This document shows, one piece after another, positions 9,502 to 59,406 of a DNA stretch of 64,000 nucleotides. Positions within the stretch are counted from its first letter, which is position 1, and the number at the start of each line of letters is the position of its first letter. The notes beneath the pieces were generated by a model. That model was not told the DNA's origin. It made no database searches and saw only the letters and a program-made list of their open reading frames with translations. This stretch comes from Phytophthora quininea (Eukaryota > Oomycota > Peronosporomycetes > Peronosporales > Peronosporaceae), in the NCBI GenBank assembly GCA_011947345.1, contig JAAVTG010000568.1, positions 620,001 to 684,000 on the forward strand, read 5' to 3'. Made by a program: the position numbers and the translations under genes.

Positions 9502-9804
9502 CTTAGTGTCGCTTAGTTGTGGTGCCAAAGCCAAACTGGAAAGAAGTGAAGCTTGTAGCGACAAGTGCATGGTGACAACAGTGAACAAGCGAGTTGCTCT
9601 GCGATGATCCGAAAGAAAAGGGAAACGTTGTGCGATCGCACTCATCATCCGCCGATGCCTCTCCAGCTCACCACGGGATTGCGTCCTGCCACTTGTTTAC
9701 TGTGTCTGACCGTACTCATTGCCGTGACAATGATGAATGTCGCTGTTTTGTTTGCTGCACGATTTCGCTGCTCACGGACCGTTGCTCAAAATTAAGGCCG
9801 AGGA

Positions 9805-30229: not shown

Positions 30230-31655
30230 ATGTGGAAGCTTGCTCTCATCGGATCGCTGGCGCTGCTGGGCGCGCTCACGCAGGCCCAGATCCGCGATGG
30301 CGACGAGATTTGCGTCATGAGCGACTCGAACTCGTGCGCGCTAGACGACCTCACCACTTCGGAGCTGGACAGCAGCACGGTCATCTACCCCGGCGGCGAC
30401 ACGCGCTGCGCCTTCGACGACTTCTCCAACTCGAGTGTCGAATTCACCACCAACGCGACCTATTTCTTCCAGGTGTTCCCGGCGCCAGACCAGAACAAGA
30501 ACAAGCTCGTGCTGTACCTCCAGGGCGGCGGCGCCTGCATCGACGACCTCACGTGCGCGTTCGGGCTGCAATGCATGTACGAGACCTTCAGCCCCAACGC
30601 CAAGCCGCTCAGCACGGGCATCCTTAACCGCTCCAACGACGAGAACCTGTTCAACGACTACAACATTGTGCACCTGCCCTATTGCACGGGCGACCTGCAC
30701 ATTGGGAGCCGCGTCGATGAGATCGCAGACAGCGCCCTTTACTCGCTGCTGGACATGCCCCAATGTCTGGGCCACAACATGACGCTACACCAAGTGGGCT
30801 ACAACAACTCCAAGGCGGTGCTCGACTGGACGCTCGAGAACTTCCCCAACCCGGAAGAAATCATCATCAGCGGCTCGAGTGCCGGCGCTCTGGGCGCCCA
30901 AGCGCTCAGTGCGCTGGTCGCCGATATGTGGCAGGTCCGTGACAACAATATTCGATACTCGGTGCTGGCCGACAGCTACGTGGGCGTGTTGCCCGGCGAC
31001 TACACGGCCGGTAAGCTCATCTCATACTACGGCACGTGCGACTTGGACCTCAAGATGCCGTCCAAGATCATGGACGAGTGCGAGGACGACAAGCTGACCG
31101 CGGCCGAGATGATGACGTACATGATTGAGGACGTCCCGACCGCGCAGTGGCTCTTCCTGGACAGCAAATACGACATGACCCAGCGGTACTTCTACGCTCT
31201 AGTGGACGAAGGAATTCTGGGTTACCCGTTCACGGACCTCATCAGCGGCGAGGACTTTTTCTCGGTGCGTGACTTGCCATTGTGCTGCTGTCGCCTAGTA
31301 AACGCTAACTCGTTGGTATTTGTGTGAAATGCAGAACATGACCGCCATCATCGACGTGTACTTGAACATCAGTGACGAGGTCTCAACGTTCTACGTGGAC
31401 GGCACCCAGCACGTGTTCCTCACGGTGAATGACTACTACCACAACGCCACCCGCAGTCCTGGTGGTGAGAAGCTGGGCGACTTCCTGAAGGAATGGCTGG
31501 TGACCAACCAGTCGCTCAATGAAGAGGCCTCGGCCGGGTCGCTTGCTGCCAGCGGCAGCACCGCTGGGTCTTCGGCGGACTCTGCTGCAGTGAGACTTAG
31601 TGGTGCTCTGCCTTTTTCCCTGTTGACGATAGCCGCCTCGACGTTCTTCATGTAG
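30230..31655 (+). CDS. Secreted Notum/pectin acetylesterase-like esterase (CE13-like), copy 1
   Basis: Two exons, 30230-31264 and 31335-31655, give 451 residues. The 70-base intron has a GTGCGT donor, a CTAAC branch site and a CAG acceptor. A signal peptide (MWKLALIGSLALLGALTQA) leads into the family core: YPGGDTRCAFDD, LYLQGGGACID (oxyanion loop), HLPYCTGDLHIG and the nucleophile elbow SGSSAGALGAQ. The acid is in VLADSYVG and the histidine in DGTQHVFL. Plant relatives deacetylate pectin. Several NxS/T sites are present. The C-terminus is Ser/Ala/Gly-rich and ends in a hydrophobic stretch (FSLLTIAASTFFM), a probable GPI-anchor signal. The substrate is inferred. Confidence 0.85.
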
Positions 31656-31768
31656 GGCGTTCAAGTATGAACTAATAGATATACCAATGAACAGGAAACA
31701 TCTATTGCTCGTTGATCCACTGTTGGCATCCCGATGCCATCGAGCACGTACTGCCTCGATCAAAGCTG

Positions 31769-32847
31769 CTAAGCATAATAATAGTGCATGGATATGTGTG
31801 CAAAGTTGATCTGTGCGCCGAACACGGCCTGCAGCACCACCGTCGAGATGAAGAGCGCCAGGACTAGAATGAGCGGGAAGAGAAACTGCTCGGTCCGGTG
31901 GAGGAACGGGAGCGCTAACGATCACAGCAGCATTTCAACAGCGTCACTCACAACTATTCAGCCCACCAGCCCTCCAACGACGTCACGTACCCATGTATCC
32001 GAGGAAGGTAATGTACGTGTAGAAGCCCCAGCCCAGCGAGTACAGCAAGTTCCCCGCCAACAAACTCACGAACGAGTCCGATGCCAACATCGGCGCCAGC
32101 AGAAACTAATCACAACAATCGCCCACAGCATTAAATTCTCCATCTGCTGCAGAACCAATTCCCATGATTGCTCCCGCTCTCACCTGCAGCACGTAGAGGA
32201 ACAGGAACAGGATGAAGAACGAGTTGCAGTGAATGTCGAACGCAAACTGCCACTCCACTCGCTGCTCAACGTACAGCGCGTCTCCCATGCCATGGCTGCA
32301 ACAAAAGACACCAAGTATCAGCATCGATCTCTCCAGTCTCACTAAAAGTATCCGCTCACTTTCTCAGTCGCAAGTGATGATTAGCGATCCACCAGCACGC
32401 GGTGGAGATCACGAGTCCGAAGGCGAGCCACTCGATCACCACTGCATGGAATAGCAGCGACAAGTACTTGGCGGCGCTGTCCACGCGGAAGGCGACGGCC
32501 CAGGCGACGGTGGCCACTAACAGGAAGGCGAACTGGATGGCGGCGAAGGCCGGGTCGTCTCTGGCCCAGCGATTCTTGGTCTGCTTGCGGTAGTAGGCGC
32601 TCTTGTAGACTTTGGAGGGCTGCACGCAGAGCGTGACCATCTGGTAGAAGGTGGCGTCCAGGTCCATCTGACGGTAGTCCAGCACGCGGGCAAAGTACTC
32701 GGGGAAGGCCGAGCACGAGCGGAACACGTCGGCGCCGGTCTTGCGGGGCTTCTTCTTGCTGCGGCGAGCGCCTCCCAGTGCGTCCGAGGCCACGAACTTC
32801 ATGTCGATGCTGGTGTTGGGCTGCAGCAGCTCCTCCGACGACAGCAT
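31769..32847 (-). CDS. UNC-50 family Golgi membrane protein
   Basis: Four exons: 32847-32360, 32295-32184, 32105-31991 and 31914-31769. All have GT...AG introns in matching phases (GTGAGC, GTGAGA and GTACGT donors). The conserved core is unmistakable: YFARVLDYRQMDLDATFYQM, VYKSAYYRKQTKNRWARDDP, VEWQFAFDIHCNSFF and LLYSLGWGFYTYITFLGYM. Five to six transmembrane helices follow a basic cytosolic head. UNC-50 (yeast Gmh1) is a Golgi membrane protein linked to ARF-GEF function and receptor trafficking. It lies on the opposite strand between the two esterase genes. The end is HISMHYYYA. Confidence 0.9.
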
Positions 32848-33438
32848 CGTGATGGCTCGGGGAAGCTCTTGGTGTTATAGTGTGGGAAAATGGGCATGTT
32901 TATTGTTTTTACAGTTTTAGCCGCAAATGAAGAAACAGTAGGAAGAAGTTGTTGTCGCTCGGAAGGAGCTCGAACATCGGCCCACGTGACGCCCAAGAAG
33001 ATTGCTGCTGTGGAGCGTGGAGAAGACCTGCGCGATGCTGGACTCTAGCCAAGGCGGGAGGGTGGCAGGCTCTGGACGCTCTCGTGAGGAAGCCACGCGA
33101 GTTGAAATGAAGAGCACTTCAGCTACTCTGCACTTGTTGCGCCTCCACAAGATTTTATAAAGGTACTCGAGCTGCTTGGGGCATGCCATCTCGAACGAGT
33201 CGCTCGCACTCCACCGAGATTCAATGTCGACGGCGACAAACACACTTCAACTAGCAGTTGAAGTAGTTGGCACCAGCGGCACCGTGTGGGACGCAACGGG
33301 AAGACATATCGTTTAACATGGGCTAGTATAGCCTTGCAGCTCGACTACGGATTGCAAGCCTCCAATACACTCGACACAAGCTGGTCATTTCGGAATTTGC
33401 TTCGCCCGCCACACACTCGAGTCCCAAGAGTCCAACCA
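32848..33438. other. Divergent promoter region between UNC-50 and esterase copy 2
   Basis: About 590 bases between two genes that point away from each other. No supported coding sequence; promoters for both are expected here. Confidence 0.45.
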
Positions 33439-34773
33439 ATGGTTTCTCCACTCGCGATCCTGTTTGCCGCGACGATTCTGGTTTCGGTGCAAGGCAAATC
33501 GATCTGCACGCTCAGCGATACCGAAAGCTGCGCCGTCGAAACCCTCACGCCCTCTGTGGACGATGACAGCATCCTCATCTACCCCGGAGGCAACACACGC
33601 TGCGCTTTCGACGACTACCAAGACAATGTGACTACGTTCACGACCAATTCGACGTACTTCTTTCAAGTGTTTCCGCATCTTTCGGACAAGTCGAAGTTAA
33701 TGATCTTCTTTCAAGGTGGAGGCGCTTGTGCGGGCCAAGACACTTGCGCTTTCGGGATCCAGTGTTCGCTCGGAGCTAGCGCTACACTCACCACCGTCGC
33801 GACGTCCAGCAGCGCCGGAGTGTTGAACCGCTCGCTAGACAACAACATGTTCAACGACTGGAACATCGTGTTTGTTCCGTACTGCACGGGTGACACTCAC
33901 ATCGGCAACCGAGTTGTGGCTCCGTACGAAAGCGGAGTCGAAGAGATGCTTGGAAATCCGCAATGCCTCGGGCTGGACTACTCCATGTACATGAACGGGT
34001 ACAACAACACCAAGGCGGTGCTCGATTGGGCTGTGCAAAACTTCCCACATGTCGACAACCTCATTGTGGGTGGCGAAAGCGCCGGGTCACTTGCTGCTCA
34101 AATGCACAGCGCACACATTGCAAAGCTGTGGGATATCGAAGGCAAAGGAGGAAGGTTCTCCGTGCTCCCCGACAGCTACGCTGGGGTTGTACCAAAGGAC
34201 CATCCAGGATCGGAGTCGCTGTCGTATTACGGCGCTTGTGGAAACGATTTCGACTGGTCTGATGATATCGCCGCTGCGTGTGAGGCCGGCACTGCCACAA
34301 CCACGGAGATGGTAGAAGCGCTGATCGAGGCTCAGCCGGAAGGCAATTGGCTGTTCATCAACAGCAAGGGCGATCTGACACAGCGATACTTTTACGCCGT
34401 GGTGGAGGAAGGGATTGCGGGCTACCCGTACACCGATCTGATCTCGGAAGCCGACTTCTACAGCAACCTGACCGCAATCTTGGATGCGTATGAGACTGTG
34501 AGCTCTCGCATCACCACATTTTACGTCGAAGGCACGAAGCACGTCTTTCTCGCCGACTCGAACTTTTCAAGATACGAAAGCGACGAGGGATTGCTGCTGG
34601 GGGACGTGATTAACGCGTGGTTAGTCTCGAATTCGAGCTTGAATTCCAACGCGACAACGCCTTCGTATTCTTCAAGTTTGCCAACTTCGACTACTGGATC
34701 AACATCAACAACACCATCAGTAACGCCAGCAACAAAATCAACCACCACCAGTCCGACACCAAACTCCTGCTAA
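33439..34773 (+). CDS. Secreted Notum/pectin acetylesterase-like esterase, copy 2
   Basis: A single-exon paralogue of copy 1, 444 residues. The ATG at 33439 was chosen because it begins a signal peptide (MVSPLAILFAATILVSVQG). The same landmarks are present: YPGGNTRCAFDDY, IFFQGGGACAGQDTC, VPYCTGDTHIGNR, nucleophile GGESAGSLAAQ, acid in VLPDSYAGV and histidine in EGTKHVFLAD. It lacks the intron of copy 1, at the position after EADFYS. The tail is a Ser/Thr/Pro linker without the hydrophobic end of copy 1, so this copy should be freely secreted and not GPI-anchored. Predicted function is ester hydrolysis on an extracellular glycan. Confidence 0.87.
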   Translation: MVSPLAILFAATILVSVQGKSICTLSDTESCAVETLTPSVDDDSILIYPGGNTRCAFDDYQDNVTTFTTNSTYFFQVFPHLSDKSKLMIFFQGGGACAGQDTCAFGIQCSLGASATLTTVATSSSAGVLNRSLDNNMFNDWNIVFVPYCTGDTHIGNRVVAPYESGVEEMLGNPQCLGLDYSMYMNGYNNTKAVLDWAVQNFPHVDNLIVGGESAGSLAAQMHSAHIAKLWDIEGKGGRFSVLPDSYAGVVPKDHPGSESLSYYGACGNDFDWSDDIAAACEAGTATTTEMVEALIEAQPEGNWLFINSKGDLTQRYFYAVVEEGIAGYPYTDLISEADFYSNLTAILDAYETVSSRITTFYVEGTKHVFLADSNFSRYESDEGLLLGDVINAWLVSNSSLNSNATTPSYSSSLPTSTTGSTSTTPSVTPATKSTTTSPTPNSC

Positions 34774-44579: not shown

Positions 44580-45586
44580 AAGATAGAACCGAAGGCGGGA
44601 CGCCTAAAGACACAGACTCGGGGAGTTCTACGTCTTCCTCTGTGCACGTGCACTACTACGCAGCCCCACTACACAAGATCCCGATGCGTGGGCTACGTTT
44701 GAAACCCTCGAGGAAACCCAGGACCCAGATGAAGTATCAGCTGAAGTGGACATGCAAGCCGTACATGAGGAAGACCAAAAGCTGTCCACGACGACAATCA
44801 CCGAGCCGCCCGCTCCCAAGACACAGAAATCGGAAAAGCCTCGACGACAAACGTCCGTTGGGACGATCGCAGAGGGAGCTTTCAAAAAGGGAAGGGCTAT
44901 AACATTGTTGTTTGTCGGCTGGAGATAATTTGTTCGGATACTATTCTTCGCGACGAGATCCAGCAAACTGCTCACGCAATGAAGCGGATCCGGCTCGAAA
45001 CGTAGCACCTCGTCAACTTGCACATGCTGCAATGTCTGAAGAACGATCTCTCCTTTCTGACTACGACAACACGTTCTTTGATCATTGCTGCTCTGGTGTC
45101 TGCCCGACCGGTGAAACGCATCGTATCGCTGTAAAATGCCCCGCATTATGGGAGTCTATTCAATTCTACGAATCGCACCGGGGCCGTGCTGGTCTCGCAC
45201 CGGTTAAACATTAGACTGGATATGGCAACCTCAAGAAGGAACTTACAGTTGTAAATGCCGCCGTGATGATACGTGAGCTGTTCTACAGACGTTTGAGGCT
45301 CTACGTCCGCGTCACCTTCGGTGGTCTCGACAGCAAGCTCACGTAGCGGCAGAGGAAGAAAAAATGATCTCGGAAAGACGATTATGCGTGCCTGCTGCAA
45401 CACCGGGAAGACGGAAGTCCCGAAAGCGCTCCAAATGCGCGATACCCTCACGTCGGCGGATACCGCTTCGAGTGAGCAATGGATCCCTTCCCAGCCACAT
45501 AAAAGAAAACGGAATGGGATTTATATACGACTGATTTGGGAGTTCCAAGGGGTCGTTGAGAGATGAATGGCATTCGTCTAAGCTTA
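44580..45586. other. Unassigned remnant coding-like sequence
   Basis: On the plus strand, a stretch from about 44670 to 44925 reads as an acidic, Thr/Pro-rich protein piece (DPDAWATFETLEETQDPDEV, then EKPRRQTSVGTIAEGAFKKG) with no recognised family. The next 600 bases hold only short frames. It may be the edge of a transposon or of a captured gene. Confidence 0.3.
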
Positions 45587-46320
45587 TTACTCCTCCACGA
45601 CTGATGATTCGTAATGGAAAGATGGTAGTCTTCGCACTCGCAGCCACGGGTAGCGGTCGTTTCTTATCTGCTGCCCATCTTCACTCACGACTGCCAGCTT
45701 CCGGAGAAGACGACTAGTGTCAACCATCTTTCTCATGACGTGTCGTTTGACATTTGCATTGTATATTTTGCACGGATTGTTGGTTGTTGCAAAGCCGGTC
45801 GGAGAATGAAATCGCTGCCACCTCCAGTACCGGCTGTCTAGCCACGGCTCTTGAAAGTACTGAGCAAATGCACCGAGGCCTAGATTGTACGTCCGGTTTG
45901 CCAAAACTCCATCACGAACGACACTAAACTCCACCAGAGGAGCTGTGTAGTGCATTTCGATGATAGCCTTGTAGATAGAGCGCCAGCACGGCTGTCAAGC
46001 TGTTTTGTGGGCTTTCGGACGTTATACAGCACGTGAAAGAAACACATGAGAAATTTTGCTTCGCCAAACCCATCAACATGCTGTAGTCTATTGTACTGCA
46101 CATCCTCAGCGTCTCCAACAACTGCGTCAATTTTCAGTCTCAATCTGAAACGTTTTCGATACATTTAAATCAAAGCTAAGAGCTCTTGGGCTCGGTGCGT
46201 CAACTGACAACAAACTCACACAAGAGGTGATACTGAAGGGACCGATCGCTCAACCAACCACAAGTCAAAACAGGGTAGCCCAGTTCACTCAGCTTAAATG
46301 TTGCGTCGATGTGAAACATA
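45587..46320 (-). pseudogene. MULE transposase, catalytic part, broken
   Basis: On the minus strand a first acidic segment, MFHIDATFKLSELGYPVLTC (near 46.3 kb), matches the first Asp region of Mutator-like transposases. Next comes VGDAEDVQYNRLQHVDGFGE...LMCFFHVLYNVRKP with the second Asp and CxxH-type motif, then DSRYWRWQRFHSPTGFATTN and KRHVMRKM near 45.7 kb. These are typical of Phytophthora MULEs. Several frames are needed and stops intervene, so it is inactive. The N-terminal zinc-finger region of a similar element lies at 48.15-48.6 kb on the same strand. Confidence 0.75.
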
Positions 46321-47417
46321 GCAAATATGCCTTCTGGTTCGAACCGCTTTGTCAAGAAGTCTTACTGTCGTGATACCAACGACGAACGAATCATTATCAT
46401 CACCGGTGCCGAAATGTGGGAAGCCTTCGTGGTCATAGGTTGGACCGAAAAAAACGCCTTGTCGTAGTCAATGCTGGACTGGTACGGGGACTCCGCACGA
46501 TACCTTTATATGACGATGTGAATTGCGTTTTCTCTATGGATCGCACTGTGGAAAGTTTACATATGGAGTTTACTATGGAGCTTGTGTTGGATATTACTTT
46601 CAAGAGATGAAGAAGTGTGCGACAAAACGAGCCGCTTGGGAGAAGGCAATGGTGTGCTGTCCTATCAAGGATGCGCCCTCAAGACTAGGAAGTGCACCCA
46701 AGAAAGTGTTCTTGAAAGGCACGCCCAATAAATGGCGCGCTCTAGGAATGCGCGCTGAAGGAATCTCCGCTCTTGAAATGTACGCCCAAGGGCACATTGC
46801 CTTGAGAGTGAGTGCACGTTACGTCCCGGTCACCCCTCGCTCTTAAACGGGTCGCCAAGAACTAAGGTATATATTGCCACAGTGGAAGGTATTCCTGTGT
46901 GCAACCCGTCTCGCCTTGGCTAACCTCACGGTGTGTGAGGGAAGGACCTGTAAACCCCAAGCTGCCCAAGTGGCTCGAGAAGCACAGGTACCGCCCAAGA
47001 CCAGGAAGGTTTTGGATGAACATTCCAATGACGTATTCCTTGGGCGGACGCTCCTTCGACTGAGATTTTCTTCGACGGAAATTCTCTTGGATGGAGATTT
47101 TTGATGCAAGTTTCTGCAACATAGATCCCGTCGATGGAGATCCTCTCTTGGACGTGGATTCTGGCACTTAGCGAATATTTGCATTCACCATGAATCCAGT
47201 GGTTTGTACCCAGAATGCTTACGCTACAGATGATTTGAAGAGCGACGAACCCACGATAAGTGGCCGTCATCAAGTCAAGCATACTAAGATCAAGACTAAT
47301 TCGTATCCTAATGACTGCACCCAAGATCTGCGGAAGAGCTGCAGATCTACTAGCTATAAGAGATATCAATCAGAGAGTTCTTTTTGCCCTGTACTGCACA
47401 AGCGCCAGTCGGTGCTC
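46321..47417. other. Low-information remnant sequence
   Basis: Short frames only. Between about 46660 and 46810, and again near 47030-47160, there are loosely repeated words (GCGCGCT/ACGCCCAA and TTCGACGGA/GATGGAGAT) that look like old tandem repeats. I recognise no gene. Confidence 0.3.
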
Positions 47418-47423
47418 TTTGCG

Positions 47424-47778
47424 TGTTAGTGCTAGGTGACCTGCTGCTCCCCACCTGTTTGTTAAGTCCAATTGGGAGGGAGTCTAGGCGCCCCGACCAT
47501 TTCGTTTACTAGTTGGGCGTCTGTCTTGCAGGCCAACCCATTTCATTATAAAACTACGCTCAAGCGGCTGGATAGCAGTCAACGCCTGAGTTTGCTTTGA
47601 GACTGCGTCTTACAATGTTCTGTATTGGGATTTGTATTGACTGATCTGTGTGTCCCTTCGATTGAAGGTGGTGCGCGTTCGCTGAACCAAGTCCTAGACT
47701 TTTCGGGTGTTTTGGGCGTTGGATCGAACCTGTTGTGACCCCGGCCAAGGATCTATAAGAATAAGTGTCGGCTGTATA
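47424..47778 (+). repeat. Candidate solo LTR or small insertion with 6-bp duplication
   Basis: A 355-base segment beginning TGTTAGTGCTAGG is flanked on both sides by TTTGCG (47418-47423 and 47779-47784). It contains a TATA-like CATTATAAAAC near 47545. Length and 5' end suit an LTR, but the 3' end (GCTGTATA) is not CA. It lies between the two parts of the broken MULE. Confidence 0.3.
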
Positions 47779-48150
47779 TTTGCGTAAGGATCTCTCTGTA
47801 TTGATTATCTGTGATTGCTAGTTCTTCTTGAATTTGCAGTCCAAGAACCCCGTCTCTTCAACTGCCGCCCAAGGAAAGTGGACTGCAGGGGAACGAATTG
47901 CGGGCAAACTAATCCATCTAACACTTTTTGTGTCTTTGACTGTGAAAGGCCATCCAGTAGATTAAACACGAAATCCAAGGGTCGAACCTATAGGGATTCA
48001 CGAGGTGCACACGCCAATCCTTCAACGTCAGTTCCAAGAACCGCCGCTGAAGGAGTACACGACGGATCTCGGTTCCCTAGATCCTAGCACGGCTCGCGCT
48101 GTACGACGATACACTACCCAGCAACCCCTGGACGGGAAACATCACCAGAC

Positions 48151-48600
48151 TCAACATTTAATAGACTCCACAGAATTTCTCATGCCAGCTGTTCCACGAA
48201 GATATTTCACACATCCGGCTACTTGAAAATACGACAGCATTCCATTAACAGGTTCGGTGTCTTGTGAACGGCGAAGGCCCGACCAAATATGTCGAGGCGC
48301 CAACCCCGTTTCACCCATGTCCCTTATATACTCTTTCATTGCTGTCGTCACTCTTGCTTTGTGTTCTCAAGCACACGCAGCTGACCCTCGCGCGTGATCA
48401 CACTCTTTCCATGACCAAGTGAATATATGTTGTTGAGCACATCCACACTTTCCACTTGACGGGACACATCTGCTCGCCATGACCGTCGCCGAAACGCACG
48501 TGATGCTTGTGCACTTCATCCGGCACTCGAGCATGTCGTGATCTCCAGGACAAACGCGGCATATTTGTGTCTTTGTGGCGTACACAGCAGAGCATCAACG
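48151..48600 (-). pseudogene. MULE transposase, N-terminal zinc-binding part
   Basis: On the minus strand: a Cys/His-rich stretch near 48.5 kb (CRVCPGDHDMLECRMKC) followed by VTTAMKEYIRDMGETGLAPR HIW-type sequence at 48.35-48.15 kb. This is the order seen in N-terminal regions of oomycete MULE transposases, before the catalytic core. Frames are short and broken. It may have belonged to the same element as the catalytic piece at 45.6-46.3 kb, separated by later insertions. Confidence 0.5.
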
Positions 48601-49807
48601 TTTGGCCGCACGCTTCATCGCAAACTCTTTATTGTACGAAGCCGTGAATGCAAGGTGCCAGCCGTCCACAGGCGGGTCGGCCTCGTCCAGGGGGCTCATG
48701 TAAAGACTGAAGCTCGTTATGGAAAGTCTGGGGGCACGTGACCAGCCTAAATGGCTTTACTGTCATAGCAAATTCCTACTTTTGTAAAACAATTCGTTGA
48801 TGGACTAATTGACAAGAGAAATAAATTGACGTACCATTTTCCTCGAACAACTACTGCATTTCTGCCTGCCTTGAACTTGTCGTCGGGACGGGTAGGAGAT
48901 TTCGTTTGTGGTAGCTGGCTCCGTCGAGAGAGCTGTACGAAACTGCCAGCGTCTTGCACAAATCATGAAGCCAACGCTAACATTGTGCGGCGTCAAAGTT
49001 GCCGCGATAGTCACCTTCGCTTTCCTTACGGTTGGCTACCCAATGCGTAAAAGAATTTGGCACAAATTGTCCCTTCAAGATACCCCCTTGCCGGTATATA
49101 ATACCAGCAGCTACAATACAAATTCTTATCATACAATTTAAGAAAATTTAATTTGTGGAAGTAAAATATACATCTGTACCTTGACCACTCGCGGCGTATC
49201 GCTTCGTATCTGGCGGAAGCCATGTCGTCCCATGAATCATCTGGAGCAGCAACTTATCGAGTTGATATGGGGGAGATGAAGGGAATCATTGCTAGACGTC
49301 CTGCTCACAACATCTCTGAGCTAGACACCAAGGTGTGAAGGAAACCGAGGCAAAAATCATACAGAAGAGCTGGTTGAAAAATATAAACGTATACAAAAAG
49401 TGGAGGACATGTACATACCTCAAGGCGATGAAGACAGTGGAAATTGTGAGTCGGAGGACGAAAACGAGAAGAGGATGATCAGGAATAAATCTAACCTTTC
49501 ACATGTAACAGGCACAACTCGATCTGAACGACGTTTGCAGCACTTTGACCCTAAACTACCATATGATTTTGCATATGGTTCAGCTGCTTCTCAAATTATT
49601 GATCAGTGTCTCGATGAATCACAGGCTAGCCGTAATGGAGCCCTTTCCCAAAACTTTTGAGCGTCTGAGGCATGTTTCTCAAGACGAAGTTTGGAGTGGA
49701 AGGAGGTCGACTTTGGCAAATCCGACTGCAGAATCAGAATTTAAAGTTGCGCTTTACCCTACATATGTGTAATCGTATATGGAAAGTTTTCAACTTATAG
49801 GAGACAA
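48601..49807. other. Unassigned, with divergent short frames
   Basis: Two ATGs face away from each other at 49223 (-) and 49221 (+). The plus frame begins MSSHESSGAATYRVDMGEMK and, after a frame break, continues as an acidic piece near 49.40-49.66 kb (KVEDMYIPQGDEDSGNCESE). It may be the decayed N-terminal region of the Fanzor gene or a separate remnant; I cannot decide. Confidence 0.3.
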
Positions 49808-50708
49808 ATGAGGCTAAATTTTAGTCCGAACTATTTTGGCCAGCACAACGCGTTATCAGGGTTTTATTCGCGCATCAAGAAACGCGTACACGACTACGAT
49901 GGCAACCTTCCTGACATTCCGCTGTCAACACCCATCTACCAAGCCAAGTGATGGGGGATCATGCGAGATGCGTTCGACATTACGCGCTTTGAAACCAGGA
50001 CAGAAGACTGTCCCCTGATGAAGAACGAGTTCCTGCCGGTGAAAGAGAAGTACGATCACGCCAGCAGCCTCTTTCCTTACCAAGTCACGACAGATGGGTA
50101 CAGCGCCTCGGTTTTACTGTTCCGACGGAAGACGGAGAAAGAGATGACGTCGGACAAGAAGGAAGGCCCAGTCGTTCCTGCTGGATATAACCTGACGTCG
50201 TCATCGGACTTGATCCCGGGATGCGGGCTTTGGCCACTGCGGTGCGAGAGGACTTGCGATCCGACACAAGGCGTAGACGACCCCGGTGTGGATCAAAGCA
50301 AAACGATCACCCTCGCTGGATTCATAGAGCCAAACCTCCCAACCATCGCAACGACCGGGATATTGTGCAGGTGACCACGCGCGAGTATCATCACTTGGCT
50401 GGTTTCAATCGCTTCCGGGCGTGGAATGAAGGGCAGCGACGGTCGCACCCAGAGTACCAAACGATAATTGCAGCGGTGTCGTCCTTTAAAACCTCAAGCT
50501 ACGCTACCTACCTGGGAAATTTGCATTATTTCTGGTCTCACGTGGAGTTTGTGATGCAGTTTGCTGTGGACCGGCCATTCCGCAAGTGGAAGTTCTTCCG
50601 GAAACGCATGACTCGCGTGGCAGTCGACGCGATCGCCAAGCGCATTGCCCCCCTGTCAGTCGATTGACGTACGTGGTGTACGGCTACTGTAGCAGACGCA
50701 AAGGTGTC
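49808..50708 (+). pseudogene. Fanzor (TnpB-like) nuclease, upstream part, split by a retroelement
   Basis: From about 49808 the frame reads ...NALSGFYSRIKKRV, with one in-frame TGA at 49949. It continues with FDITRFETR and VTTDGYSASVLLFRR, the region before the nuclease core in Fanzor proteins (DGxxVS motif). After a frame step near 50200 comes RuvC-I: IGLDPGMRALATAV, with the catalytic Asp codon at 50212-50214. Then follow TTREYHHLAGFNRF and, after a CCCCCC run (50648-50653, one base short), YVVYGYCSRRKGVKG up to the insertion at 50713. The missing C-terminal part is at 58913-59267. Fanzors are eukaryotic relatives of TnpB and Cas12, RNA-guided DNA nucleases carried in transposons. The N-terminus is uncertain, and the TGA and the break near 50200 suggest it was already decaying. 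Confidence 0.8.
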
Positions 50709-50713
50709 AAGGG
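50709..50713 (+). repeat. Target-site duplication, left copy (AAGGG)
   Basis: AAGGG immediately precedes the LTR end TGTAACG and is repeated exactly at 58908-58912 after the other end TTACA. Five bases is the normal size for Ty3/gypsy integration. Confidence 0.9.
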
Positions 50714-51197
50714 TGTAACGTGGTAGACGGGCGCAATTGGAAGTTGAAGCTGCCCGAAGAGAGTACCAAATTCCTGGCACACTCGGGCGTAGTAGGCGCT
50801 GGCGGTCGGTGGCGAGACGAAGCGGAGGGTAGACGACCACTTGATGGATGCGAAGTAAATTCGAAAGTGATATTGTTTTGATTTTGGCTTTTGTTTGGGA
50901 GCTACAGGGAAGCCTGTAGCTCCTGACTACTTGATTTACTACTATGCATTTCACTATACTGATTCTCTACGCCCTTTGGAGTGAATCTTATGTGGGCGCA
51001 TTCCTTTAGCACGGCTCCTCCGAGCCTTCAGGGCCTATAGTGAGACTAAGTGATGGTGAATGATTGTCGTTACAGTGCTCAGTGTGCGTGCAATCTTTGC
51101 TATGCTTCAACATGTAGTTAACAGACATTGGCGGTTAGCGCGCCAGTGCTCGCGATGTCACAGCTCGAGCCTCGCTCGTGACATTGGCGACGTTACA
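50714..51197 (-). repeat. 3' LTR of the gypsy element (484 bp)
   Basis: Runs TGTAACGTGG...CGACGTTACA with short inverted ends. Its first 45 bases match 56710-56756, its middle matches 58755-58860, and its last 20 match 58888-58907. The other LTR has an internal deletion as well as the LINE. LTR divergence is clear, so the insertion is not very recent. Confidence 0.88.
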
Positions 51198-52581
51198 TCC
51201 TCCGGGGCTTGACTTCTCGTTGACGCTTCTTGAATTCCTCAACGAGAATATTCCAATGCGAAACGCGTTTGCTGTCCTTCACGTTCCCACGTAGATTCGT
51301 GGTCTGGCAATCCATGCCGTTTAACGAGTCACTCCGGTTTGGGATTGAATTGACGTTTGCGGAGTAGTTTCTCCATGATGTACTTGGTTTCACCGGACTC
51401 GTCATCGACAATGATACGCGAAGCCTTAGGAATTTCAAAATGAAAAGGTTTTCCTCGTAGTGCCTGAGCACATCTACGTTAAACGTAGAGATCAGAAATC
51501 TCATACTTTTCGGCATGATGAGCTTAGTGACATTCGGATTGATCATACGCTCAATATCGTATGGTCCGACCTTGCGGGCGGTAAGCTTTGCGCGTTTTTT
51601 TTCCGAAATGTCTTGAGTCACATGTCCGACAGGGATGCGACGTGTATCTAGCATAACGATATCTCCAGCCTTGAATGAGATACCAGTCCTCTTTTGGTCA
51701 TAATACTTCTTCTGACGTTCTTGGGTTTGGATGAGGTGCTTCTTAGCAAGCTCGATGATCTCTTGGCGACGTTCTTGAAATTGTTTGGCATATTTGACGA
51801 CGCCGTGTTGCCTCTGTGTCACGATGGTGGGATTGTTCAACGGATCCATAGGATTGCGTTCCTTACGACCAGTGTCCACTTCAAACGGCGATCTACCAGT
51901 AGATGCGCTGACCAGCGCAGCATGGGCATACTCAATAGTTCCCAAATGTTCCGACCAATTGCTACCGTGGTACGATATCATGCAGCGAAGTGCGGCTTCC
52001 AGAATCAAGTTCTGGTGTTCAGTCTGTCCGGCAGCTTGAGCACGGTAGGAAGTAGTCATGTGAAGATGAATTCCCGCCAGCTTAGCCAGCTACGACTAAA
52101 GTGGGAGTCGATTTTGAGACATGATCGCTGATGGTAGACCATGGCGGCGTACGAAAGAGTCGAAGAAATGATGCGCGGTCTTTTCAGCATCATCGGCACG
52201 GTTGCACACTCTATACTTCGGACGTATCGATAACTTATCACCAACAGTCATGATAGCATCATAGTTGCTGGATTCCGGTAGTCCCGTAACAAAATTCGTA
52301 GAGACAACAGACAAGCATTCGTCTGGAATGGGAACAGGATTCATTTTCCTATTCTTGCGGGCGTTGCTGTGTTTCCAACGACTACAGGTTCCACAGCTTT
52401 GCACATAGTCATGAACGTCTTGAACCAACTAGGCCAGTAGTACCACTGTGATAGGCGAAGATAGATACGATGCGACCCAAGATGAGCGACGATGTTGGAG
52501 TCATGAAAGCATTCAATGACCGACGTGCGAAGACGATACGCATACTCGCATCAGTGTTATATCTGTCTTCGACACGAAGAC
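51198..52581 (-). pseudogene. Gypsy integrase with chromodomain, degenerate
   Basis: From about 52.58 kb leftwards: the HHCC zinc-binding region (YVQSCGTCSRWKHSNARKN), the catalytic core, then AAGQTEHQNLILEAALRCMI and GTIEYAHAALVSASTGRSPFEVD, the C-terminal GPYDIERMINPNVTKL domain and, in another frame, a chromodomain piece (DDESGETKYIMEKLLRKR; LPDHESTWERE). The first core Asp appears as Asn in STNFVTGLP, and the second acidic motif is lost, so it cannot be active. Several frames are needed. Confidence 0.8.
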
Positions 52582-52649
52582 AAGCAAGAGTATGAAGAAG
52601 TCTATCGTGTTCAAACCTTGACACGATAGACTTCTTCATACTCTTGCTT
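52582..52649. repeat. Perfect 29-bp foldback at the RT deletion
   Basis: Arms 52582-52610 and 52621-52649 (AAGCAAGAGTATGAAGAAGT start) are exact reverse complements around a 10-base loop. The foldback sits where the protease-side sequence meets the integrase side, at the position where about 2 kb of reverse transcriptase and RNase H should be. Confidence 0.93.
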
Positions 52650-54005
52650 TCGAGTTTGCGTTTGAAGTCCGCGGCGGCTACATCCAAAGTCGCGCGTGTG
52701 CTTTGTAGTGTTGTTGGATGACTAGGAAACGTAATTCACGCGAACGCCAGTTTATGGTTGACAGGAACTTTGTAAACCATGGTTTTCCCAAAAAGACATC
52801 ATGGGCAGAACGCAGTGGCCATTCCATAACCGTAAACTTGCGGAAACAGCGACCAAAGGTAATGATGGCCGTTCCTTTCTTCACGGAGCAAGTTCGGGTG
52901 GAACTACCATCGAACCGAGTCTGTGGTAACTCCAGCAGTCTTCATGTTGGCGACTAAGCCAGGACGAACGACGTTGCAAGTGGCCCCATTGTCAAACATA
53001 ATGATGACATGTGTGCTATCGTAAGTTCCTTCTTTGTGAATCACCTCGTTTTCACGATTGTCCGCCAACAACGTGGATGCGGAAATTTCTTGCACTTCAA
53101 CAACAGTGTCTGTCTCATCGTTTTCTGAATGATGAGCAGATGGGTTTGCTCCACTCGCGTTCAGGTTGCTGATAAACGAACGCTGTGGATTGTTGGGACG
53201 GGCGCATCTATCCTTGTTCATGCGCTCAGTGTGTTGCACTAGCGACATTTCTTCTTCTTCTGCGGACCGGATCGTCTGTTCCTTGTATACCCAGAATCAA
53301 CTTTCATGGGTTCGGGTTCATTCTCTCGAGCTCGAACAGGTGCAGGTTGCGAATGCTGTTGAGCATGAGGCGGCTGTCGCGAATGGCTATGATCCGAGGC
53401 AAGATGTGCTGGATGATGGCCTTTGTTCTGCACATGATACGAGCGAGCATATTCCAGTGCAACTCTCATTGCACGACCAACCGTTTTACAGCGGCGATAT
53501 TACACTTCTTCACCAGTTGGGCTGACCAGGCAACGTGTGAAGTACGTGACCTTGTCGATTTCAGTCAGGTCCGTGATCTGAACAATGATTGAGCGAAAGC
53601 GAGTAATGTACTCTTCCAAGTTAGGGCAACGTTTCTGTTTCAAGTTGTAGAGTTGATCCCGAAGACGCTCTTGTAGATCAGGCGGCGTAAATTCTTTCTT
53701 CAGCCAGTCCTTCAAAGATTCCACAGTTTTAATCTCCTTTTTGCTCAGGATGTATCAAGCAGCAGCATTCCGTTTGGAGTTGGAGGTAATCATGGCCAGA
53801 TAGCGTGAACTTTGATCCTCATTCTGCCAATCCAAACTTTTTGCCTTGAAGTACTGGTCAAGTTGTTCCCAATACAATTTAACAGATTCGCCGAATTTCC
53901 CATGAAACTCAGGCAGTCGCATACCTTCCACCTTGGTTCCACGGTTGCTCATGGCATCGAGCGTTTTTCCATCGTCTCAATGATTTTCTGAGTGATGGTC
54001 TCCAT
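52650..54005 (-). pseudogene. Gypsy gag and protease, degenerate
   Basis: The gag start is the ATG at 54005 (METITQKIIETMEK), followed by LPEFHGKFGESVKLYWEQLD and, after an in-frame TGA where the family has Trp (RNAAA-stop-YIL), by SLKDWLKKEFTPPDLQERLR and CPNLEEYITRFRSII, the classic retrotransposon gag region. Near 53.0 kb a protease-like IIMFDNGATCNVVRPGLV appears, with Asn where the catalytic triad has Ser or Thr. Further pieces (HDVFLGKPWFTKF) belong to the region between protease and RT. Dead. Confidence 0.8.
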
Positions 54006-54768
54006 TGACCATCTCCCGGATTTAACGAAGTCATTTTGACGGAGAAGTGTTCTATACTTTTTTGTTTACTCCGACTCGATGCGAGCCTTTTTATACTCTA
54101 TTTCCGTTTGTTTGAGACGTAGGATATGTTTCTGGAACTCAACGATGCTATCCTCGAAGGCCAGGCGAAGATCTTACAGTTTGACTTGAAGAGTATCGGA
54201 TTCGGCGTGCTCCACGCAGTCGCGGAAGAAATTTTCAACTATATCGCTCTGCTGGCGAGTCGGATCGAGAAGCTCACCGGCGAACCGGTGTACGTTTTTT
54301 CTGCAAGCACACAGTAGATTTCGTTGTGCGGAAAATCGAATCCGTCGTCCCAGTCGCGTTCTGTGCGTTCGCGTCGGCTGTGTCGGGGATTAGGTTACGG
54401 AGAGCTTTGACGAACCGGAACTGTCGGTCCACGCTGAATGCGAATGTGCTCTGAAGTGAGATAACCGAGAAGCGGCTCTGCAGCTTGTCGAAGAGGCCGC
54501 CAATCGAGTGGCGAAACGAGTAAGCCTGCTGTTTACACTTGGGCATCCAGTGGTTCACAGACGGCGACGGAGTGTGCAAGATCGGCACAGATCCGGCATG
54601 AGGCAGGGGATTAATAAGCGCAACCCCCATCAGAACAGACGCTGGGTACCAACTCTCGCGGCAGCGACGTAGACAAGGCGACAGCACGCACTCACGGAGT
54701 GACTTTCCGTGTGTCGATCACCGAGATGCGCGAAAGCAGGCGCGTAGAGAAGTCCCCCTGTTGCAATA
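54006..54768. other. Retroelement leader, left of the pogo-like insertion
   Basis: Lies between gag and the pogo-like element. It includes A/T-rich sequence near 54050-54110 and a short plus-strand frame (54126-54317) with no known domain. It probably represents 5' leader of the gypsy element. Confidence 0.4.
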
Positions 54769-56472
54769 CAAACAACGACGGAATTAGCCGGCAACGCAAA
54801 AGCCGGCATTGAAGCTAACATAGGAGCCAATAGAAAACGCTCAAATAACAAATTTTAACCAATCATAGATATTAAGATTTGACTGGCTTACAGCAAATTG
54901 CTGTGAGTTACAAACTAATTTTCAGCTAATTTTGCGAGATGCCACAGAGGCAACGCAGCTGCACCATTAAGGAAAAGCGGCAGGTGATACAAGAAATCGC
55001 CGTCGTTGGTGTTTCCACCATCGCACTCGATCTGGACTACCCGCGCGGAACTGTGGACGGCTGGTGGAGACAGCGGGACGAGATTTTAGCGTATAAAGGG
55101 TGCGCAAAATCAAAAACGCTGAAGGATTAAGGGCGAAAGGAGCTGTATCCGTACGTTCCAGCCCTGGTAACTTACATGAAGATAAACGACGGGAGGAGAA
55201 GGTTGGTTTTCGCTTTTTTTTCGATGAAATGCTAACTTTTACTACGATGTAGCAAAATCACTAAGCTTTGCCTTATTTTTTGTGAACAATAGGCATTGAA
55301 AACGAACGGTATGATAGACTTCATGTGCCAAATCAGCCAGCGCTGGGTCACGTTGTATCTCCAGGGTAAAAAGAGTGGACGAGCTGCTCTAGAGCGCCTC
55401 TGTCAACGTCTTGCAGAGCGGTGAGGTGTAATCAATCTATTTTTTGTCTGAAATATTATTAAAATACTAAATTTTACTTTGATTTTTTTACTTTAGCCAC
55501 GGATTTTCCTCACAGAAGCCGCAGCTTGCCAAGCTGGGCTCCGAGGCCTTGGAAGGGACCAGGGCAGAGTTTGCGATGGAGTTGTGGCAGGAATACGAGG
55601 CGTTCGCGGGTGGTGGCATGTACAATCTTGATGAAACGGCCATAAACTCTGAAATGCCACCAACCCCGAATCTGGGCCATGAAAGGTCGCCGCGATCCAG
55701 CTCATAATGTAGAGACCACCAAGCACATTGGTAGGATGACAGCAGTTCTCACAATTTGTAACGACGGTAAGCTGAAATCTCATTTTCCTAGCATTTACGT
55801 GATTTGGGGCTAAAATGCTAAATGTTATGGCACATTTTAGGTAAAAAGTTGCCGATTCTTTTTATTGTACGCGGCAAACTAGGAGGTTTGATCGGCAAGC
55901 GCGAGCTTCGAGAATACCCCAAGGCCACTGATACGCAGTGCTGGAAAGCGCGTGGGTGGATGTCGTGGGGTGGGGATTTTACGTAGAAAACGTCTTGCAA
56001 CATAAAATATCTGATTCGTCAATCCTCCTCCTTGACAATTTTGAGAGTCATGTCTCGGAGGAGGGCCAGCGCATTGTTGCTGAACTTGCAAGCACCACAG
56101 TGGTCCCATTACCACCAACCAGCACTTCGGTGTGCCAGCCGCTTGATGTTGGTGTAATGGGACCACTAAAAGCAAAACTTAGGTCAACATTTAGTGGAAT
56201 TACGGGAGGTACTGCAAAATAAAAGCGCGTACGCGCTATCAAATCCACCATTGCTGTCTGGGAGGATATCTCCGCGGACACGGCCATTCGTAGCTTCGAG
56301 AAAGCTATTCCTAGGTACCCAGAAGTAACGAATTGACAATAAACCCCATTTCTGTCAACCGTCTGTTTTTTGTCAAGGTATTACGTTCGAACTTTAGCGA
56401 ATCAATGAACATGCCGGGTTTTTCGTTGCCGTATTTTGTATGCAACGCGCCGCCTAATTCCGTCGTTGTCTG
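54769..56472 (+). mobile_element. Pogo/Tigger-like DNA transposon (1.7 kb) with TIRs
   Basis: Terminal inverted repeats start CAAACAACGACGGAATTAG on the left and CAGACAACGACGGAATTAG on the right, one mismatch in 19. Both ends are flanked by TA (54767-54768 and 56473-56474), the target choice of the Tc1/mariner-pogo superfamily. It encodes a broken transposase. It sits in the leader of the gypsy element, so it arrived after that element had formed, unless it was already carried there. Confidence 0.85.
54939..56336 (+). pseudogene. Pogo-like transposase, broken
   Basis: The start is MPQRQRSCTIKEKRQVIQEI, a psq/CENP-B-type helix-turn-helix (ALDLDYPRGTVDGWWRQRD). Further pieces are a second HTH (ISQRWVTLYLQGKKSGRAAL), the first catalytic Asp in YNLDETAINS, the second in ILLLDNFESHVSEEG, and LPPTSTSVCQPLDVGVMGPL. 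These are separated by frame changes and stops. Domain order is right for a DDE transposase of the pogo group. Confidence 0.8.
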
Positions 56473-56687
56473 TATGCCTCTTCCCATCCCAGGAGTGATA
56501 AACCCTCTAAGGCGATATCTCTAATATTCACTAGTCATACTGAACTGTGGTGTAGATGTGGCCGAACCAGCCATTCGGCCTCACCTTCTGCTTTCTCTAA
56601 ATGAATCACTTCGGCTTTTGCCTTATCCTTAATAACAACATCGTCTACACGCTCCAACGTCTACATCTACCTCGTCATACCACCAGG

Positions 56688-56707
56688 ACCAGAGCCAAGT
56701 ACTACCA
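56688..56707 (-). other. Primer-binding site of the gypsy element
   Basis: On the minus strand, two bases after the 5' LTR end, the sequence reads TGGTAGTACTTGGCTCTGGT. It begins with TGG, complementary to a tRNA CCA end, as expected for a tRNA primer. The tRNA identity is not determined. Confidence 0.65.
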
Positions 56708-56709
56708 GA

Positions 56710-58907
56710 TGTAACAGTAGTAGACAGGCGCAATAGGAAGTTGAAGCTACCGATGATTTTTGGTGGGTTGGGGTGACGCCCTCCCGGACCACCGACGAGC
56801 ATGATGCTCTCGGGCATCTGCCGGTCTCTAACAAATCTAACTCTCACATGTTCTCCTACATCCCCCCCACGAGACCCCTCTCCCCTGCCTCCTTCGCTTA
56901 GGTACGTTCAATGTTAATTCCATTGGTTCTGAGCGCAAGAAGCGCGACACGCATCCTGCAGGATTCGCAGCATACCGTGTTGACATCGTTGCTCTCCAAG
57001 AAACGAAGATATGCACTGACGCCACGCAGCTAATAGGTAACTACTCCCTGACCACCCTGAAATGCACTAACCCCCACTGCGGCGTTGGGGTTGCGGTGGC
57101 ACCTCATTTGCGCCGCTACGTAACCAGGGCTTGGGCTGTGTCTGATCGAATCGGTGTCCTAAAACTACGCGGTCCTGACGATATACCAGCAGAATTACCC
57201 AAGTATGGCGCCGATGCCCCTCGTTCAACCGCTTGCCGAGCTCATCAACCAAGGTTTCGCCATAGGTCAACATATCCAGTTCGGTGCCGGCCTCCTGACC
57301 TGTCTGCCCAAGCCCAACAAGCCCTGAGGTGACTGCGCCAGTCTCCATTCGATTGTCTTGCTCAACTGCATCCGCAAAGCTTTGTCAGTCGTCGTGCTCC
57401 GCCGCATCTCCGGCAAAGTCGCAGAATATCTATCGCCGCGCCAGAGCGGTTTCCGCCCAGGCCGTAGCACCGCCGATGCCGTTTGGGCTCACCGCTGGAT
57501 CGCTGCTCGAGCGCAACGCTACCGCGAAGTCTACCATCTTCTCGGTATCGACCTGTCGAAAGCCTTCGATACGATTGACCTCTCCAAGCTCGCAACTGTG
57601 CTGCGGACGTTCCTCGATGAAGACGAAGTGCGCCTCATCCAACTACTGCTAACGGACATGACGCAGGTCCTCCGATCCGGATCAGCCACGCTACACCCGT
57701 TCACGGGCAACCTTGGCACGCCCCAAGGCGATTCAATCTCTCCCGTTCTGTTCATTGTTTACCTGGAAGCTGCTCTACGCGATTTTGCCACTCCCTCGAC
57801 GTTGAACGCACGTTCCTGGACGACATGATCGTCTACGCAGACGACGCCGATTTTGTGTGCCGCAGCATTACGTCCAAGGCAGGCTCCCGCGATCCTGGCA
57901 CGTTGGTCGTTGACCATGAGCCTATCGAAGACCGAGCTCACGACCGTCGCCCGTACGACTACTAGTGCTACCAGACGCCACACCCACGCTCTCGAGGAAG
58001 CATGGCGCAATACCTAGAAACTCAGCTCGCTACTGGGAGATGCCGAAGACATATCGCGCCGCAAACAGCTCGCGCGTGCCTCCCTCAACGGGATGTGGAC
58101 GCTATGGCTGCGAACCTCGCAGACTTCCGAACGGACACGAGTTCGCCTGTATAAGTGCTATGTTCTACCGATCCTGCTGTACAACTGTAGTACATGGGCA
58201 CCCACGATGGGAGACATCCTTGGCCTCGAGAGCTTTCACCGCCGTCAACTTCGCCAGGTGCTCGATATCAACTACCCCAGGCGAATCTCGAACGCTGCGC
58301 TCTACAAACGTTGCAACGCTCGACCGCTGCGCTACCGCATCACCAAAGCGCGGTGGGCGCTCTTTGGACAGATTCTCCGCGGATCGGAGAGAAACCCAGC
58401 ATTCCTGCAGATGGCTCACTACTTCGACAGCTCTGAAGCAAGTGGCTGGCGAGGATGTCCTCGTGCCACGCTGCCGACGATCCTGGACCACGACCTCCGC
58501 AGTATCAAGCGAGGATGCCGGCTCCGTACCAAAACGGACCTACTCAACATTCGTACCCGAGCGCAAGACGCGACTGAATGGAAGAAACTTGTCGGAGACA
58601 TAATCGCATGGATGCCGTGTGAGGACGACTTGACGTATGCGGATACTACCCTACACCGGAGACTAGCTAGTTTAAACCTAGACTCCCAGTAAGAAGATTG
58701 ACGCGAAGACGTAAGACAACAACAACAACAACAACAACAAGAACAACTAGCTGTCGATGAGTGTACCAAATTTCTGGTACACTTTGCCGTAGTAGCCGCT
58801 GGCGGTTGGTGGCGGCGAGACGAAGCGGAGGGTAGACGACAACTTGATGGCTTTTGTACAGGCTTCCTGTAGCTCCCGTGCGAGCACGTGACGTTGGCGA
58901 TGTTACA
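56710..58907 (-). repeat. 5' LTR of the gypsy element, split by a LINE
   Basis: Left piece 56710-56756 (TGTAACAGTAGTAGACAGGC) matches the start of the other LTR. Right piece 58761-58907 (GTGTACCAAATTTCTGG...GATGTTACA) matches its middle and end, with an internal deletion of about 300 bases. Between them is a LINE. Confidence 0.82.
56757..58748 (+). mobile_element. APE-type LINE (non-LTR retrotransposon), internally deleted
   Basis: An N-terminal endonuclease piece (VDIVALQETKICTDATQL; CGVGVAVAPHLRR) runs directly into the RT domain at GPDDIPAELPKYG, so the region between them is lost. RT motifs follow: LGIDLSKAFDTIDLSKL, GTPQGDSISPVLFIVYL and VYADDADFV (catalytic YADD). Then come LYKCYVLPILLYNCSTWAP and a C-terminal region ending LASLNLDSQ. 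An (ACA)n tail lies at about 58716-58747. Flanks AGCTACCGATGA and AGCTGTCGATGA (56745-56756, 58749-58760) look like a 12-bp target duplication with two differences. The frames are broken. Confidence 0.85.
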
Positions 58908-58912
58908 AAGGG
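58908..58912 (+). repeat. Target-site duplication, right copy (AAGGG)
   Basis: Exact repeat of 50709-50713, directly after the LTR end TTACA. The Fanzor coding sequence resumes at 58913. Confidence 0.9.
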
Positions 58913-59267
58913 CCACGCGTCGAGTCCGGTGAAGCAGGCGCTGCGGAAGCGCGCAACAGTGGTTTCTAGGGATGAATTCATGATGAGCAAGCCCTGCTCG
59001 CAATGCCATCAACCGCTCTCACCCGTCAACTACACTGTAGACACCAAGCTTTCGAAGAAAAAGAAGCGCAAGGGTGTCGTGCTGGCCCGTGATCGAGCCG
59101 AAGTGCAGTTCGAGGAGAACGAATGCTTTGGGGTGCGGCACTGCGACAACGCCTGCTGCAACGCCCGCTACTGGGATCGAGACGTGAACGCTGCAATCAA
59201 CATGCTTGAGCTGCTCAAGAGCGAGCTGCTAGGTCAAGGACGCATGGAAGCCCTCAAGCGAACGTAG
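58913..59267 (+). pseudogene. Fanzor nuclease, C-terminal part with zinc finger and RuvC-III
   Basis: Directly after the duplicated AAGGG the frame continues that of the upstream part (..KGVKG then HASSPVKQALRKRAT). It carries VVSRDEFMMSKPCSQCHQPL, the Fanzor (D)EFxxSKxCSxC motif with a conserved acidic residue and the first zinc CxxC (58995-59006). A Lys-rich loop, CDNACCNARYWDRD and RDVNAAINMLELL follow, with the RuvC-III Asp codon at 59181-59183. It ends at the TAG at 59267. This 3' exon-like piece has no internal stop and looks better kept than the upstream part. Confidence 0.88.
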
Positions 59268-59277
59268 GCAAACAACC

Positions 59278-59299
59278 GTGGAGATGAGAAAGTCTCCAC
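59278..59299 (+). ncRNA. Hairpin after the Fanzor stop, possible guide-RNA scaffold element
   Basis: GTGGAGA, an 8-base loop and TCTCCAC form a perfect 7-bp stem 11 bases after the Fanzor stop codon. In Fanzor and TnpB loci the guide (omega) RNA overlaps the 3' end of the gene and its UTR. Position and shape fit, but one short hairpin is weak evidence. Confidence 0.3.
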
Positions 59300-59406
59300 C
59301 TTGGCTCAGACCTGGATATTGTTAGCATAGCTAGCAAAAACGATAGCGCAGCTAAAACTAGCGATCATTCGACTTCCTGCCGCTGCAGACTACTCGACCA
59401 GTTGGC

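What the first reader, a model, noticed from the sequence alone, without database searches (positions are those of the whole stretch)
49808..59267. A Fanzor RNA-guided nuclease gene split by an LTR retroelement with an exact AAGGG target duplication
Upstream of 50713 the plus strand encodes the pre-core DGYSAS motif and RuvC-I (GLDPG). Downstream of 58912 it encodes the EFMMSKPCSQC zinc motif and RuvC-III (RDVNAAINM). The 8.2 kb between them has TG...CA ends, two related LTRs, a primer-binding site and AAGGG on both sides. Taking the insertion and one AAGGG out joins VKG directly to HASSP in frame. So a TnpB-like nuclease gene was present here and was disrupted by a later insertion. Family knowledge: Fanzors are RNA-guided DNA nucleases carried by eukaryotic transposons. 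Inference: intact copies should exist elsewhere in this genome or in relatives.
Basis: partly seen in the sequence, partly recalled or inferred. Interest (0 to 1): 0.88.

Follow-up and report, generated by a model that had tools for sequence, protein, structure and literature searches.

The report
Dead Fanzor gene split by transposons
In what is likely a Phytophthora genome, a decayed copy of a gene from a known family predicted to cut DNA with an RNA guide (Fanzor) is split into three pieces by two inserted clusters of transposons, so it most likely makes no working enzyme and is an ordinary fossil, while relatives uninterrupted at the same site lie elsewhere in that genome.

Summary
AAGGG at 50709-50713 and 58908-58912 flanks an 8,194-bp element with TGTAAC...GTTACA LTRs and gag and integrase domains. 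Four sibling copies in the same genome run straight through this site (one AAGGG in three, AGGGG in the fourth), so it is a true insertion. The split gene is a Fanzor1: it keeps the DPG, the relocated glutamate six residues before the zinc ribbon, the RuvC-III aspartate and four zinc cysteines, and a profile of its relatives matches the solved Fanzor1 proteins (E 3e-35 to 7e-32), Fanzor2 only at 0.0014.

A further Fanzor piece lies at 44671-45572, beyond a second insertion (45573-49850). The LTR element itself contains a pogo-like transposon and a LINE, and no reverse transcriptase of its own was found. The Fanzor also has frame-breaking indels, stops and a changed signature residue. LTR divergence (17 of 158 sites) resembles that between Fanzor siblings, so the insertion is old; whether it killed the gene is open. 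None of the five family copies is open over its full length; one keeps 527 codons. Gypsy/Ty3 insertion in a Fanzor gene was reported before, in Spizellomyces. Ordinary but well-preserved.

The parts
44671..45572 (+). Fanzor piece 1 (N-terminal part), broken by indels
   Evidence: 80-85% DNA identity to four siblings; P0007 residues 27-309 by tblastn; 5 indels not divisible by three against C366
45573..49850 (.).
   Evidence: Interrupts sibling homology, with about 90 bp of Fanzor missing and no clean duplication; none of 5 ORFs tried reaches a Pfam cut-off
46508..48149 (.). High-copy repeat of about 1.6 kb nested in the second insertion
   Evidence: 39 further matches at 85-90% identity, a lower bound
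49851..50713 (+). Fanzor piece 2: pre-core and RuvC-I (DPG codon from 50212)
   Evidence: 85-87% DNA identity to four siblings; motif position; frame changes and stops
50709..50713 (.). Target site duplication AAGGG, left
   Evidence: single copy in siblings
50714..58907 (-). Gypsy-like LTR element, oriented on the minus strand, with two guests
   Evidence: LTRs, gag PF03732 1e-8, integrase H2C2 9.2e-10, Tf2-type SH3 5.5e-12
50714..51197 (-). Left LTR (3' LTR of the element), 484 bp
54769..56472 (+). Pogo-like DNA transposon, TA on both sides
   Evidence: Inverted repeats 27 nt, 93%; flanks; DDE_1 1.1e-10
56710..56756 (-). Right LTR, first part
   Evidence: 37 of 42 identical to the left LTR
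56757..58748 (+). LINE inserted in the right LTR, between 12-mers alike at 10 of 12
   Evidence: RVT_1 4e-19; (CAA)n tail and flanks
58749..58907 (-). Right LTR, second part, with an internal deletion
   Evidence: 83 of 96 and 21 of 24 identical to the left LTR
58908..58912 (.). Target site duplication AAGGG, right
   Evidence: single copy in siblings
58908..59267 (+). Fanzor piece 3: relocated glutamate (codon 58974), zinc ribbon, RuvC-III aspartate (codon 59181)
   Evidence: no frame-breaking indel against C366, one 9-bp gap
59268..59318 (+). Right end with two hairpins, predicted omega-RNA scaffold; second hairpin damaged here
   Evidence: Shared by 5 of the 8 right-end matches, after which flanks differ; folds

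Best explanation
This is a decayed Fanzor1 gene, likely brought in by a transposon, that is broken into three pieces by two insertions, one of them a Gypsy-like LTR element flanked by an AAGGG duplication. Shown: the pieces, the duplication, the uninterrupted site in siblings and the guests inside the LTR element. Inferred: the ancestral copy likely made one Fanzor protein that bound an RNA transcribed from its own right end and cut DNA matching the flank, as reported for Spizellomyces Fanzor. The LTR element would have entered by ordinary integrase action, staggered by 5 bp, while it or a relative still supplied the enzymes; its LTRs then diverged, and a pogo-like transposon and a LINE landed inside it. 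The window copy most likely makes no nuclease today.
For: AAGGG on both sides of TGTAAC...GTTACA; sibling C366, C557 and C691 have one AAGGG there, C146 AGGGG. Third piece and second insertion. DPG, relocated Glu, RuvC-III Asp and zinc cysteines present. Sibling protein P0001 matches SpuFz1 at 2.7e-7 and PpFz1 at 1.9e-5; family profile matches SpuFz1 3.2e-35, PpFz1 4.2e-33, GtFz1 7.4e-32 and the mimivirus Fanzor2 at 0.0014; the first seven structure matches of the P0001 model are these three Fanzor1 proteins. Indels not divisible by three against C366: 5, 2 and 0 in pieces 1, 2 and 3; stops.
Against: The window pieces alone do not reach the Pfam cut-off. The structure matches have modest TM-scores (0.41-0.48 by query), from a model with mean pLDDT 74.5. 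The element's left end is missing in the window, and no terminal inverted repeats joined the ends among the 25 longest pairs shown for each of two siblings, so 'transposon' rests on the shared right end and repeated copies. The three truncated relatives end differently on the right.
Confidence: 0.93

Rival explanations
1. The Fanzor was already a pseudogene when the LTR element arrived, so the element was a bystander. This is a rival to the reader's word 'disrupted', not to the anatomy.
For: Pieces 1 and 2 carry 5 and 2 frame-breaking length differences against C366, and a second insertion lies in piece order before it. All four siblings are broken somewhere without any LTR insertion at this site.
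Against: Piece 3 has no frame-breaking indel, and LTR divergence (17 of 158) is as large as the divergence between siblings (K80 0.083-0.154), which leaves time for the lesions to have come afterwards.
Confidence: 0.5
2. The split is an assembly chimera rather than an insertion.
For: The region is rich in repeats and the assembly has 993 contigs; no reads could be examined.
Against: A 5-bp duplication exactly at LTR termini, with the single site in siblings, is what integration leaves and a misjoin does not.
Confidence: 0.02
3. The gene is alive because the insertions are spliced out as introns.
For: The reading frame is locally continuous across the AAGGG site in siblings.
Against: Stops and frame changes within pieces 1 and 2 remain; about 90 bp are missing at the second insertion; Thr412, the same in 32 of 32 aligned proteins, is Met here.
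Confidence: 0.01

Closest known systems
Fanzor1 loci of Spizellomyces punctatus (SpuFz1; PMC10432273, section 7 read in full, other passages seen)
   Same: Single-gene Fanzor1 element, several copies in one genome, conserved 3' end after the stop; that paper reports 11 loci with further genes between the inverted repeats, including Gypsy/Ty3 'upstream or downstream of or in the Fz gene'
   Different: Spizellomyces elements have 30-nt inverted repeats and 19 full-length copies; here no inverted repeats were found among the pairs shown and 0 of 5 close copies is open over full length
Phytophthora Fanzor1 (PMC3627910 and PMC10711439, passages seen)
   Same: Same genus in the 2013 table (P. sojae, P. 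capsici, P. ramorum) and a modelled P. cactorum Fanzor; DPG and relocated glutamate
   Different: The window copy is in three pieces; the passages seen describe no split copy in Phytophthora
Ty3/Gypsy LTR retrotransposons
   Same: LTRs, 5-bp duplication, gag, H2C2 integrase and Tf2-type SH3 domains
   Different: No reverse transcriptase found in 13 ORFs scanned; two other transposons inside; LTR nearly unique in this genome

Membership tests
Fanzor1 | RuvC-I with DPG | tested here: met
   Codons from 50212; criterion from PMC10711439
Fanzor1 | Relocated glutamate six residues before the zinc motif (ExxxxxxCxxC) | tested here: met
   Codon 58974, first zinc Cys codon 58995; by the numbering this is SpuFz1 E541 (inferred)
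Fanzor1 | RuvC-III aspartate (RD) and four zinc cysteines | tested here: met
   Codon 59181; Cys codons 58995, 59004, 59142, 59157
Fanzor1 | [TS][TS] pair before the zinc finger (motif of PMC3627910) | tested here: not met
   Met-Ser in the window; the Thr is the same in 32 of 32 aligned relatives. A lesion of this copy, not of the family
Fanzor1 | Closer to Fanzor1 than to Fanzor2 or TnpB | tested here: met
   Through relatives: profile of 32 proteins and fold of P0001; no tree was built
Fanzor1 | Lies in a transposon with definable ends | tested here: inconclusive
   Shared right end with differing flanks; left end missing in the window; no inverted repeats among those shown
Fanzor1 | Right-end RNA and RNA-guided cleavage | not testable with these tools
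   Hairpins only; the open reading frame needed for a protein is absent in this copy
Ty3/Gypsy LTR retrotransposon | LTRs and short target duplication at an empty site | tested here: met
Ty3/Gypsy LTR retrotransposon | gag and integrase | tested here: met
Ty3/Gypsy LTR retrotransposon | Reverse transcriptase | tested here: not met
   None in the 13 minus-strand ORFs of 60 aa or more from 51190 to 54766; the RT at 57358-57828 belongs to the LINE, on the plus strand. So: a broken derivative
Ty3/Gypsy LTR retrotransposon | tRNA primer-binding site | tested here: inconclusive
   TGG two bases inside the 5' LTR; the one tRNA found in held DNA matches 6 of 18

The most novel reading that the evidence does not exclude
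The dead gene's right end survives as a stand-alone guide-RNA cassette: its hairpins plus the flank after 59318 are transcribed and loaded in trans by Fanzor proteins from other copies, so that pseudogene loci serve the genome's Fanzors as a pool of guide RNAs.
Probability: 0.03. Interest if true: 0.65.

Novelty: new member of a known kind. Interest (0 to 1): 0.22.

Why it matters
Small on its own: one more decayed Fanzor1. Its use is as a nested, roughly dated record of how a Fanzor element dies in an oomycete, in a genome with about 63 Fanzor-like loci. That set would let one test whether Fanzor right ends outlast Fanzor genes, which bears on what these nucleases do for their transposons.

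Tried and rejected
Pfam and NCBIfam on the window pieces: no Fanzor or TnpB model above its cut-off; the NCBIfam ferredoxin-like hits (best 0.00084, far below cut-off) were taken for chance cysteine matches. Terminal inverted repeats of the Fanzor element: 65 and 59 pairs in two siblings, of which the 25 longest of each were shown and none joined the two ends. Intron as the reason why sibling C366 has its N-terminal part in another frame: rejected, because the two homology stretches overlap on the DNA. Short copies C151, C691:529194 and C386: first taken for 'ghost' elements with the same right end; their last stretch differs, and C151 and C691b share 99% of 4,575 flanking bases, so they count as one event. 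Class of the second insertion: 5 ORFs tried, none above a Pfam cut-off. Folds of 3' regions of two other Fanzor families (three loci): z -1.74, -0.72 and -1.38, not convincing. In one search a first, strict pattern for the uninterrupted site matched 29 of 60 held proteins with the zinc signature; the looser one 28 of the 32 aligned. No tree with labelled Fanzor2 proteins was built; I held no labelled set. Papers: section 7 of PMC10432273 read in full; passages of PMC10432273, PMC10711439 and PMC3627910; the rest seen only as search listings.

Full report
Setting. The window lies in contig C558 (620001-684000) of an 87-Mb assembly of 993 contigs.

Observation. AAGGG occurs at 50709-50713 and 58908-58912, directly outside TGTAAC...GTTACA. 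The left LTR is 50714-51197. The right LTR is in two parts, 56710-56756 and 58749-58907, because a LINE with a reverse-transcriptase domain (RVT_1, 4e-19) and a (CAA)n tail sits in it. The interior carries, on the minus strand, gag (PF03732, 1e-8), integrase zinc-binding (9.2e-10) and Tf2-type SH3 (5.5e-12) domains. It also holds a pogo-like transposon with 27-nt inverted repeats, TA on both sides and a DDE_1 domain (1.1e-10). No reverse transcriptase of the LTR element itself was found in the 13 minus-strand ORFs scanned.

The empty site. Four sibling Fanzor copies in the same genome (C366, C557, C691, C146; 85-87% DNA identity to piece 2) run straight through the site. C366, C557 and C691 have one AAGGG and C146 has AGGGG. 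Among 32 aligned proteins (P0001 plus 31 chosen from the 120 listed of 131 hits), a loose pattern found the stretch uninterrupted in 28; the other four are P0012, which has a deletion there, and P0048, P0082 and P0093, whose letters differ from the pattern.

A third piece. Searching the genome with the sibling protein brought up window 45384-45572 as its residues 1-64. DNA and protein comparison extend this to 44671-45572. Between 45573 and 49850 lies a second insertion, with about 90 bp of Fanzor missing and no clean duplication. It holds a 1.6-kb repeat with 39 further matches, a lower bound. The element's left 450 bp were not found in the window. So the gene is in three pieces, not two.

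What the gene was. P0001 (527 codons open, C366) matches SpuFz1 at 2.7e-7 and PpFz1 at 1.9e-5. The profile of the 32 proteins matches SpuFz1, PpFz1 and GtFz1 at 3.2e-35, 4.2e-33 and 7.4e-32, and the mimivirus Fanzor2 at 0.0014. The predicted fold of P0001 (mean pLDDT 74.5) finds chains of the same three Fanzor1 proteins in its first seven places, then Fanzor2 and Cas12 proteins; TM-scores by query length are modest, 0.41-0.48. The window keeps the DPG, the relocated Glu, the RuvC-III Asp and the zinc cysteines, but has Met where all 32 have Thr412.

How dead. The left pieces change frame and carry stops. Against C366 there are 5, 2 and 0 length differences not divisible by three in pieces 1, 2 and 3. 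C366 itself has its N-terminal part in another frame, and C557, C146 and C691 have stops, so 0 of 5 is open over the full length. Third codon positions differ more than first and second in 6 of 6 comparisons, siblings included, which fits past purifying selection; the counts are small.

Age. The LTRs differ at 17 of 158 columns (about 0.12 substitutions per site; standard error about 0.03 by my arithmetic). K80 is 0.154, 0.136 and 0.083 between window pieces 1-3 and C366, and 0.095 between C366 and C557. The insertion is thus about as old as the spread of this family. The order of lesions is not resolved, and I give even odds that the gene was already dead.

Right end. Eight places in the genome match the right end, window included. 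Five of them share two hairpins ending GGATA, after which flanks differ, except that C691 and C146 share theirs; the three truncated copies lack the hairpins. The 75-76-nt end folds better than shuffles in C366 and C557 (z -2.67, -2.84). In the window the second hairpin is damaged, and the fold is no better than shuffles (z -0.55; for the last 51 nt, -1.81); an upstream control gave 0.42. By position this matches the omega-RNA of Spizellomyces Fanzor, a 75-nt scaffold with a 14-15-nt guide from the flank (PMC10432273 section 7). Transcription is not shown.

Known or new. Phytophthora species appear in the 2013 Fanzor table (PMC3627910), and a P. cactorum Fanzor was modelled in 2023 (PMC10711439). 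Gypsy/Ty3 'in the Fz gene' was reported in Spizellomyces. Searches for Fanzor with oomycete and with Phytophthora listed 8 of 9 and 7 of 8 papers; no listed title concerns a split oomycete Fanzor. This is a new member of a known kind.

Noticed in passing
G000 genome-wide: 92 Fanzor-like matches on 52 contigs, about 63 loci when merged at 10 kb; a lower bound, since 82 of 238 candidates were scored.
   Followed up: partly
L046, L047, L049, L050, L051, L052, L053: A second Fanzor family (RDDNASRN motif, 7 of the 33 loci examined) has about 134 nt conserved after the stop that end near AAAGGGGTTAA, after which flanks differ (L051 departs earlier): a candidate right-end RNA. Two folds were not convincing.
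   Followed up: partly
C151:24340-24852 and C691:528504-529305 (L019, L020): Internally deleted relatives of the Fanzor element that keep left and right parts but almost none of the gene; the two share 99% flanks and are one duplication.
   Followed up: partly
window 46508-48149: A 1.6-kb repeat with at least 39 other copies; several lie 12-30 kb apart in pairs on one contig, so it may be the LTR of a large retrotransposon.
   Followed up: no
window 52582-52649: Two 29-nt arms, 100% complementary, 10 nt apart, inside the LTR element between its integrase and gag parts; may mark a rearrangement.
   Followed up: no
window 6883-10203 and 30188-34773: Repeated ORFs that look by eye like pectate lyases and pectin acetylesterases (recalled, not tested; ORFs).
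   Followed up: no
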